DNA from: Edaphochlamys debaryana
Lineage: Eukaryota; Chlorophyta; Chlorophyceae; Chlamydomonadales
DNA length: 64,000 nt
Assembly (NCBI GenBank): GCA_016858145.1
Contig: JAEHOE010000066.1
Coordinates: forward strand, 124,001 to 188,000
Reading direction: 5' to 3'
The translations under genes were made by a program, and so were the position numbers. Position 1 is the first letter of the stretch, and each line of letters starts with the position of its first letter. The notes beneath the pieces were generated by a model. That model was not told the origin of the DNA. It worked only from the letters and a program-made list of their open reading frames with translations, and searched no databases. Below are positions 8,930 to 64,000 of the stretch, one piece after another.

Positions 8930-9799
8930 TCAGGGGGCCATGAAGCGGCTGTGCGGTCTGGCGCCCCTCGAGCGCACCGCCCACAGCGCCACCAGGGCCG
9001 TCACCATGAGGGCATTGACCATCACCACAGCTGCCACCACCGGACCGCTGCCCATGTGCAGGCTGCCGGCCAGAACGCGCCGGGCCACACCCTTGTGCGA
9101 ACGCTCGGCGGCCGACGCTCGGGCGAGGTCTCCAGCCAGGTTGGGCGCGGGAGTGGCAATCAGTGCAGCGCCCTCAGCGTGTGCGGTGCTGTCGTTGCTG
9201 GTGGTGGCTGTGGCGTTTGGCATTCCGGTATCGGTGACGTCCTCCTCCTGTTCCTCCTCCTCCTCCTCCTCCGCTTTGTCTTCCTGTGCATCCTGCACGG
9301 CGGCTGGCACCGGCTCCTCCTCCTCCTCCCACATGTCCAGGAAACCGTTGGGCTGGGTGTACGGCAGCACGTGCACCGCCGCCAGCTTGCGGGCCGACGT
9401 GCGGGCCAGGCTCAGCTCCTCCTCCTGGGGTGCGGGGTAGGAGGGGGGTCCGGCAGCGGGGAGTCACGTGACTGATCCCATCCTGCCCGAGACGTGACAG
9501 ACACAAGCCAAACCACGCGTGGCACAACGGCCTGCCCCATCGGTGCATGACCCGCAGGTCAGTGCGGGGCCACCGCACTGCCGTACTGCCGTGGACACAC
9601 GCCGTACACGCACCGTGCTGTGAATGAAGAGCTGGTCCTCGAAGGACAGCAGCGAGTCGACCGCCTGGAAGGTGCCGATGGCGGACAGGCGGCGGTGCAG
9701 GGCAGTGGTGTTGTCCCGCAGCAGTGCCACCAGGCGGCTGGCGGTGTCGGCGGCGGAGAGTCCGGTGGCGGCAGCGTGGGCGGTGATGACGTCAATGTC
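8930..9799 (-). other. C-terminal stem, transmembrane helix and cytoplasmic tail
   Basis: Exons 9614-9799 and 8930-9424, in phase. The stem has SLLSFEDQLFIHST, a strongly acidic run (Glu-rich, near 9230-9340) and N-glycosylation sequons (NAT, NDS). A 23-residue hydrophobic helix follows, GPVVAAVVMVNALMVTALVA plus LWAV, then a basic 14-residue tail RSRGARPHSRFMAP and TGA. This predicts a type I membrane protein with almost no cytoplasmic domain, so signalling would need a partner. Confidence 0.85.

Positions 9800-64000: not shown

What the first reader, a model, noticed from the sequence alone, without database searches (positions are those of the whole stretch)
8930..64000. Giant GH18-like / multi-CLECT / discoidin / WSC / hydroxyproline-shaft membrane protein
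One minus-strand gene appears to combine at least five carbohydrate-recognition fold types (GH18-like, many CLECTs, discoidin, WSC, Cys beta-modules), a polyproline shaft and one TM anchor. I know of no described plant or algal protein with this architecture. A rigid glycosylated rod carrying many lectin heads next to the cell suggests adhesion, mating recognition or wall sensing. Role is inferred only.
Basis: partly seen in the sequence, partly recalled or inferred. Interest (0 to 1): 0.9.

Follow-up and report, generated by a model that had tools for sequence, protein, structure and literature searches.

The report
Giant algal lectin-on-a-rod surface protein
A green alga carries what is likely one enormous gene for a protein predicted to sit on the cell surface and to hold a cluster of probable sugar-binding domains, including a chitinase-like domain that lacks its catalytic acid, out on a proline-rich rod; its C-terminal part contains a module also found in large proteins of Bacteroidota bacteria, and the family is likely used for recognising or sticking to other cells.

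Summary
The window is Edaphochlamys debaryana. The minus-strand gene starts upstream of the window (about 71.4 kb, extended coordinates) and stops at 8930. Predicted protein, about 7,300 aa: signal peptide, 3 SRCR, FG-GAP, GH18, 2 C-type lectins (CTL), PAN-like, proline-rich shaft (about 785 residues), Cys modules, about 5 more CTL, a weak F5/8-type (discoidin) domain, a conserved C-terminal region, one TM helix. No WSC was found. The GH18 catalytic glutamate is proline here and in 5 of 5 homologues. Public annotation (P0003) ends inside the shaft in another frame; a paralogue is modelled through it; C. incerta has two consecutive models. The two shaft frames meet at a run of eight C, possibly an assembly length error. 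GH18-like paralogues lie on 10 other contigs, fitting a published SRCR/CTL expansion. New here: the C-terminal module also occurs in large proteins of Bacteroidota and one Neomarinimicrobiota (bacteria-only HMM hits the alga at E=5e-54; 0 of 208 controls). Most likely role: membrane-anchored adhesion or capture receptor (inferred). One transcript is unproven.

The parts
61474..63736 (-). GH18 (chitinase-fold) domain, exons 63736-61474; catalytic Glu replaced by Pro (YDGAELDWPS, exon 62861-62793)
   Evidence: Pfam PF00704 E=2.6e-34; alignment to chitinases of known structure; Pro at this place in 6 of 6 family proteins with the motif
63893..64000 (-). Exon at the end of the FG-GAP region; the rest of it, 3 SRCR and the signal peptide lie upstream of the window (to about 71.4 kb, extended coordinates)
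   Evidence: Pfam FG-GAP_3 1.3e-11, SRCR 4.6e-37; P0003 N-terminus mapped to 71404; SRCR 3 stretches in P0003
59852..61327 (-). C-type lectin domain 1
   Evidence: Pfam Lectin_C 3.1e-19, 2 stretches in this piece
58534..59697 (-). C-type lectin domain 2, with a short proline-rich insert that my model missed but the public model P0003 has
57662..58413 (-). PAN-like domain
   Evidence: Pfam PAN_4 1.3e-4 and 1.6e-5 in paralogue P0004, both below its cut-off
54600..56941 (-). Proline-rich shaft (about 785 residues; its frame-2 part is 63% Pro, 20% Ser, 65 PPSP), with tandem units of 30/156/312 bases
56248..56255 (-). Run of eight C where the two open proline-rich frames meet (frame 0 before, frame 2 after)
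51908..54383 (-). Cysteine-containing modules of no firm family
   Evidence: colinear with P0004 and P0002; no Pfam match above cut-off
50198..51262 (-). C-type lectin domain after the shaft
   Evidence: Pfam 5.7e-5; colinear with P0002
49349..49815 (-). Further C-type lectin exons (partial)
   Evidence: tblastn with P0002 42-49%; Lectin_C E=0.028 on a hand-joined piece
37827..38875 (-). F5/8 type C (discoidin)-like domain, weak; exons joined by hand, splice phases not checked
   Evidence: PF00754 E=0.001, below cut-off
26515..36395 (-). Block of C-type lectin domains and Cys modules (1 + 3 Lectin_C stretches in two pieces, each stretch at E<=1)
   Evidence: Pfam 2.5e-6 and 1.6e-19; colinear with P0002 and P0012
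10470..26391 (-). Conserved C-terminal region; the module shared with Bacteroidota and Neomarinimicrobiota proteins lies within about 20.7-10.5 kb
   Evidence: A1 alignment
8984..9040 (-). Single C-terminal predicted transmembrane helix, followed by a tail of under 20 residues
   Evidence: mean hydropathy 2.6; a TM-like segment ends each of the 5 homologues that reach the C-terminus
8930..8932 (-). Stop codon of the gene

Best explanation
This is likely a single giant gene (about 62 kb, some 130 to 172 predicted exons) of the green alga Edaphochlamys debaryana encoding a protein of about 7,300 residues that is predicted to stand on the cell surface and to work as an adhesion or capture receptor. 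Mechanism, with steps marked. Shown by sequence: an N-terminal hydrophobic signal; SRCR, FG-GAP, a GH18 domain without its catalytic acid, C-type lectins and a PAN-like domain; a proline-rich shaft; a second block of lectins; a C-terminal module; one C-terminal TM helix with a very short tail. Inferred: type I topology, so that the N-terminal block is the distal head; hydroxylation and glycosylation of the shaft into a stiff helix of about 0.2 micrometre; the head binds glycans, the GH18 domain as a chitin/GlcNAc-type lectin and not as an enzyme; with almost no cytoplasmic tail it acts by holding or presenting, and any signalling needs a partner. GH18-like paralogues on 10 other contigs suggest a varied recognition repertoire in this species.
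For: Domains. TM and signal. GH18 catalytic Glu is Pro. Continuity: P0004 (C119 paralogue) is one public model from SRCR through an in-frame shaft to the post-shaft modules and the start of a CTL; P0002 (C. incerta) is colinear from 53.0 to 10.5 kb (its 55.5 kb match is proline-rich and not counted); the two overlap at 53-51 kb. P0004 and P0011 (C-terminal part) lie on one contig, tags 015328 and 015331. GH18-like paralogues on 10 other contigs, with SRCR upstream on the same strand at C69 and C233 and CTL downstream at C119, C161 and C96. Controls. The finder, in a related setting, rebuilt the neighbouring IFT140 with some extra residues.
Against: P0003 ends in the shaft; C. incerta and C119 each have two separate models; my decoder also broke the gene in the shaft and restarted at 54566, so the join is my reading. 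No transcript data. The frame changes at the C8 run. 49.3-36.4 kb is weakly supported. The exon counts depend on the penalty. The family searches are incomplete: neither lists the window's own locus. No ligand, location or expression was tested; the own-genome search with the C-terminal part did not complete.
Confidence: 0.55

Rival explanations
1. Two (or more) neighbouring genes: a secreted SRCR/FG-GAP/GH18/CTL/PAN protein ending at the shaft, and a separate CTL membrane protein starting at or after it.
For: P0003 ends in the shaft region; C. incerta HXX76_003616 and HXX76_003615 are separate consecutive models; P0004 and P0011 are separate tags on C119. My decoder also closed a gene in the shaft and began one at an ATG at 54566; a hydrophobic window (mean 1.96) lies soon after the shaft.
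Against: P0003 ends in Ala/Ser/Thr-rich readings of the proline-rich DNA, the same as my finder chose. P0004 is modelled through its shaft into the next modules. In the window the proline frames are open from the exon at 57157 to the one that ends at 54523 save for the C8 run.
Confidence: 0.2
2. A decaying copy: the frame break in the shaft is real and the downstream half is no longer made.
For: One frame break; the family is large, so copies may die.
Against: The C-terminal part is open in its predicted exons, colinear at 36-48% identity with homologues, and keeps its TM. The break sits in a homopolymer next to tandem repeats of a PacBio-based assembly.
Confidence: 0.1
3. A sexual agglutinin-like or mastigoneme-like ciliary protein.
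For: Similar plan: huge proline-rich rod, lectin domains, membrane anchor (MST3: PMC11015965 passages; agglutinins recalled). Mastigoneme chains (8wa2, 9b4h) are among the weak Foldseek matches of the Ig-like part.
Against: One C-terminal TM and no polycystin-like domain found. The Foldseek matches are generic Ig-like chains with TM-scores of 0.12-0.13 for the query. No MST3 or agglutinin sequence was compared. Multi-copy in this species.
Confidence: 0.1
4. A working chitinase with lectin modules (the public name 'Chitinase').
For: GH18 profile at E=2.6e-34; UniRef name of P0004-P0008.
Against: Catalytic Glu is Pro in 6 of 6 family proteins.
Confidence: 0.02

Closest known systems
SRCR/C-type lectin orthogroup expanded in E. 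debaryana (Craig et al. 2021, PMC8226300)
   Same: Same species; SRCR + CTL; [quoted passage not shown]
   Different: The passage names only the two domains; the GH18 without its acid, shaft, C-terminal module and full length are not in it. Orthogroup membership was not checked (supplement not read)
SRCR proteins of C. reinhardtii with lectin and hydroxyproline-rich domains (PMC6704257)
   Same: SRCR + lectin + putative hydroxyproline-rich domains (passage)
   Different: Five of those are TRP-type channels; no GH18 is mentioned in the passage
MST3, axial protein of the Chlamydomonas mastigoneme (PMC11015965)
   Same: Giant (8,572 residues), five CTLs, poly(proline) region, Ig-like domains, membrane-tethered (passages)
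   Different: MST3 has a PKD2-like transmembrane domain; this protein has one C-terminal TM and adds FG-GAP and GH18
Chitinase-like lectins (YKL-40 / chitinase-3-like proteins)
   Same: GH18 fold with lost catalytic acid (chitinase-3-like proteins are among the matches; their loss of the acid is recalled)
   Different: Here embedded in a giant membrane protein; the acid is Pro
Large T9SS-tailed LamG proteins of bacteria (P0014-P0016) and Bacteroidota loci L043-L054
   Same: Share the C-terminal module
   Different: No T9SS tail in the alga; P0014-P0016 carry LamG, with no SRCR, GH18 or CTL match

Membership tests
GH18 chitinase (active) | GH18 sequence profile | tested here: met
   PF00704 E=2.6e-34, profile positions 2-317 of 317
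GH18 chitinase (active) | Catalytic DxxDxDxE glutamate | tested here: not met
   Aligns to Pro in own protein; Pro after the motif in 6 of 6 family proteins
Chitinase-like lectin | GH18 fold without the acid, binds chitin oligomers | not testable with these tools
   Profile match and loss shown; binding needs an assay
E. debaryana SRCR/CTL orthogroup | SRCR and CTL domains in one E. debaryana protein, multi-copy | tested here: met
   the published gene list was not compared
MST3 / mastigoneme axial protein | CTLs plus poly(proline) region in a giant chain | tested here: met
MST3 / mastigoneme axial protein | PKD2-like multi-TM C-terminus | tested here: not met
   One C-terminal TM helix; the only other hydrophobic window of the model is in the post-shaft Cys module. 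None of the 3 PKD_channel matches of the genome lies on C66, none in the Pfam scan
Volvocine sexual agglutinins (SAG1/SAD1) | Homologous head, mating-type-restricted expression | not tested
   No agglutinin sequence was compared; expression not available
T9SS-tailed bacterial proteins | Shared C-terminal module | tested here: met
   Bacteria-only HMM vs own E=5.3e-54, 0 of 208 controls
T9SS-tailed bacterial proteins | T9SS sorting tail | tested here: not met
   None in own C-terminus; present in P0014-P0016
WSC-domain protein | WSC domain | tested here: inconclusive
   No WSC match in 9 spliced or 6 hand-chosen pieces at E<=1, but exons around 37.6 kb may be incomplete
F5/8 type C (discoidin) | Pfam match above cut-off | tested here: inconclusive
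   19.6 bits against a cut-off of 28.2, hand-joined exons

The most novel reading that the evidence does not exclude
Chlamydomonad algae built a cell-surface recognition system on a module of large bacterial exoproteins (Bacteroidota/Neomarinimicrobiota), fused it to lectins, an inactivated chitinase, SRCR domains and a hydroxyproline rod, and in E. debaryana multiplied it into a repertoire of at least 11 loci for telling partners, microbes or chitin-walled parasites apart: an invertebrate-like pattern-recognition set in a walled green alga, with a cross-domain gene transfer at its base.
Probability: 0.25. Interest if true: 0.85.

Novelty: new variant of a known kind. Interest (0 to 1): 0.62.

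Why it matters
It turns a family seen so far as 'SRCR and CTL genes, expanded' or 'Chitinase, hypothetical' into one testable architecture: lectin head, chitinase fold without its acid, rod, membrane anchor. It suggests that gene annotation is easily cut at proline-rich shafts, so that such giant algal receptors may be under-counted. And it links the C-terminal part to large proteins of Bacteroidota through a module that got no Pfam or NCBIfam name in the proteins scanned, which raises a direct question of transfer between bacteria and algae.

Full report
Source. G000 has 141,892,200 bases in 502 contigs. Public proteins named Edaphochlamys debaryana lie on contigs of 397055, 260556 and 760263 bases, the lengths of G000's C119, C161 and C49. 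P0003, marked as encoded by the window itself, lies on a 647137-base contig, the length of C66. So the window is E. debaryana (published assembly 142.14 Mb, 527 contigs; passage of PMC8226300).

Gene model. I wrote a one-strand splice-aware decoder. On the minus strand it gives a chain of exons with mostly CAG acceptors and GTG/GTA donors down to the stop at 8930: 112 exons in the window with the stricter penalty, about 130 from 70.7 kb on with the window extended, 172 with the laxer one, shaft exon set by hand (median exon 89.5 and intron 155 bases). With the seed-only model the 54.4-8.9 kb part scores 542, its other strand 35, and 10 shuffles 0-9 (some seed ORFs come from the window). Positive control in a related setting: the neighbouring plus-strand gene, ending at 2758, came out as IFT140 (2633 bits to chain 8bda_G).

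Upstream. Past the window's right edge the gene continues. The public model P0003 begins at 71404 with a hydrophobic N-terminus and carries 3 SRCR, FG-GAP, GH18 and 2 CTL. The finding's 64000 edge is only the window edge.

Domains. Pfam on 9 spliced pieces at E<=1: SRCR 4.6e-37, FG-GAP_3 1.3e-11, GH18 2.6e-34, Lectin_C in pieces 3-6 (2, 1, 1, 3 stretches), PAN_4 1.3e-4 and CarboxypepD_reg 4.9e-4, both below cut-off; piece 8 had no match. F5/8 type C only on hand-joined exons, E=0.001, below cut-off. No WSC.

GH18. The domain aligns to chitinases of known structure. Where they have the catalytic Glu of DGxDxDWE, this protein has Pro (DGAELDWP). The motif with Pro is also in P0004-P0008, so 6 of 6 with P0003 (these were found by motif, not each aligned to a structure). 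A lectin-like use is inferred.

Shaft. Proline-rich coding runs from about 56941 to 54600, about 785 residues. Frame 0 is proline-rich to about 56250 and frame 2 from 56261 on. They meet at a run of eight C, 56248-56255. The public model and my decoder both left the proline frames here for other readings, which likely explains P0003's end; my decoder then restarted at an ATG at 54566. In the paralogue P0004 the shaft is shorter and in frame, and the model goes on into the post-shaft modules and the start of a CTL.

Homologues. P0001 (C. reinhardtii, 2722 aa), P0002 and P0012 (C. incerta, 6262 and 3936 aa), P0011 and P0013 (E. debaryana) share the C-terminal part, 36-48% identity over 24-98% of the query in the listings. 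All five end in one TM-like segment. P0006 (HXX76_003616) carries SRCR, GH18 and CTL; P0002 is HXX76_003615, on a contig of the same length. tblastn chains of P0004 (68.1 to 51.1 kb) and P0002 (53.0 to 10.5 kb, leaving out a proline-rich match at 55.5 kb) overlap. P0002 has one match between 49.3 and 36.4 kb. In one search five of five proteins chained on the minus strand, none on the plus, none reversed.

Family. The GH18-like module has 61 matches: 8 in this gene, 52 on 10 other contigs with three or more each (C96, C161, C90, C119, C49, C128, C69, C95, C233, C3), and one weak match on C57 that I left out. SRCR lies 5-6 kb upstream on the same strand at C69 and C233 (150 of 302 candidates scored), CTL 14-17 kb downstream at C119, C161 and C96. 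Searches do not list the window's own locus, so their silence elsewhere says little. This fits the orthogroup of 16 SRCR/CTL genes in print.

Bacterial link. The third protein search also returned P0014-P0016 (E 2.9e-8 to 4.5e-7), unnamed but with LamG domains and T9SS tails. One scan of the prokaryote genome collection with a five-row alignment found 12 loci among 116 pattern matches: 11 in Bacteroidota (three of them in one Aquimarina assembly) and one Neomarinimicrobiota. Their stop-to-stop ORFs have 768-3322 aa, 10 of 12 over 1,700, two running off the stretch held. An HMM of the 15 bacterial modules hits the own spliced C-terminus at E=5.3e-54, P0001 at 6.2e-69 and P0013 only at 9e-11; none of 208 shuffled or reversed controls appears at E<=10. 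The bacterial modules were cut out with an algal HMM, which favours agreement somewhat. The two C-terminal protein searches returned no eukaryotes other than chlamydomonads, but they reach only near relatives in a length range, so transfer is a hypothesis. AlphaFold of P0001 1541-2335 gives a chain of Ig-like sandwiches in its second half and an unresolved first half.

Mechanism. Head, rod and anchor layout, the GH18 without its acid, the many lectins and the lack of a cytoplasmic domain favour holding or capturing over enzyme action or direct signalling. In the mastigoneme paper residues 1,854-1,932 form a 22-nm helix, so about 785 residues would reach about 0.2 micrometre if fully extended and modified alike. 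Ligand, location and expression are unknown.

Open: one transcript or several; the C8 run; exons at 49.3-36.4 kb; whether each paralogue also has the C-terminal part (seen on contigs C119 and C161 only, by P0011 and P0013).

Noticed in passing
window 1-2758, plus strand (continues into L024): IFT140 gene, tail to tail with the giant gene; used as a positive control for the gene finder
   Followed up: yes
window 5840-6598: Tandem 330-base repeat (copies 96-98% alike), with a further 69-base copy at 6780, in the stretch between the two genes
   Followed up: no
window about 58876-58560, minus strand: A second, short proline-rich arm inserted inside C-type lectin domain 2 in P0003; similar inserts in P0004-P0007
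   Followed up: partly
exon 9424-8930, minus strand: Very acidic linker (runs of Glu) just before the TM helix
   Followed up: no
L043-L054: Module (motifs such as RDPPGD and DDDxGDxF) in mostly very long single-ORF proteins of Bacteroidota and a Neomarinimicrobiota; no Pfam or NCBIfam name for it in P0014-P0016
   Followed up: partly
window 46220-46600: GC-rich tandem low-complexity stretch in a 2-kb block of negative GC skew, inside a long predicted intron
   Followed up: no
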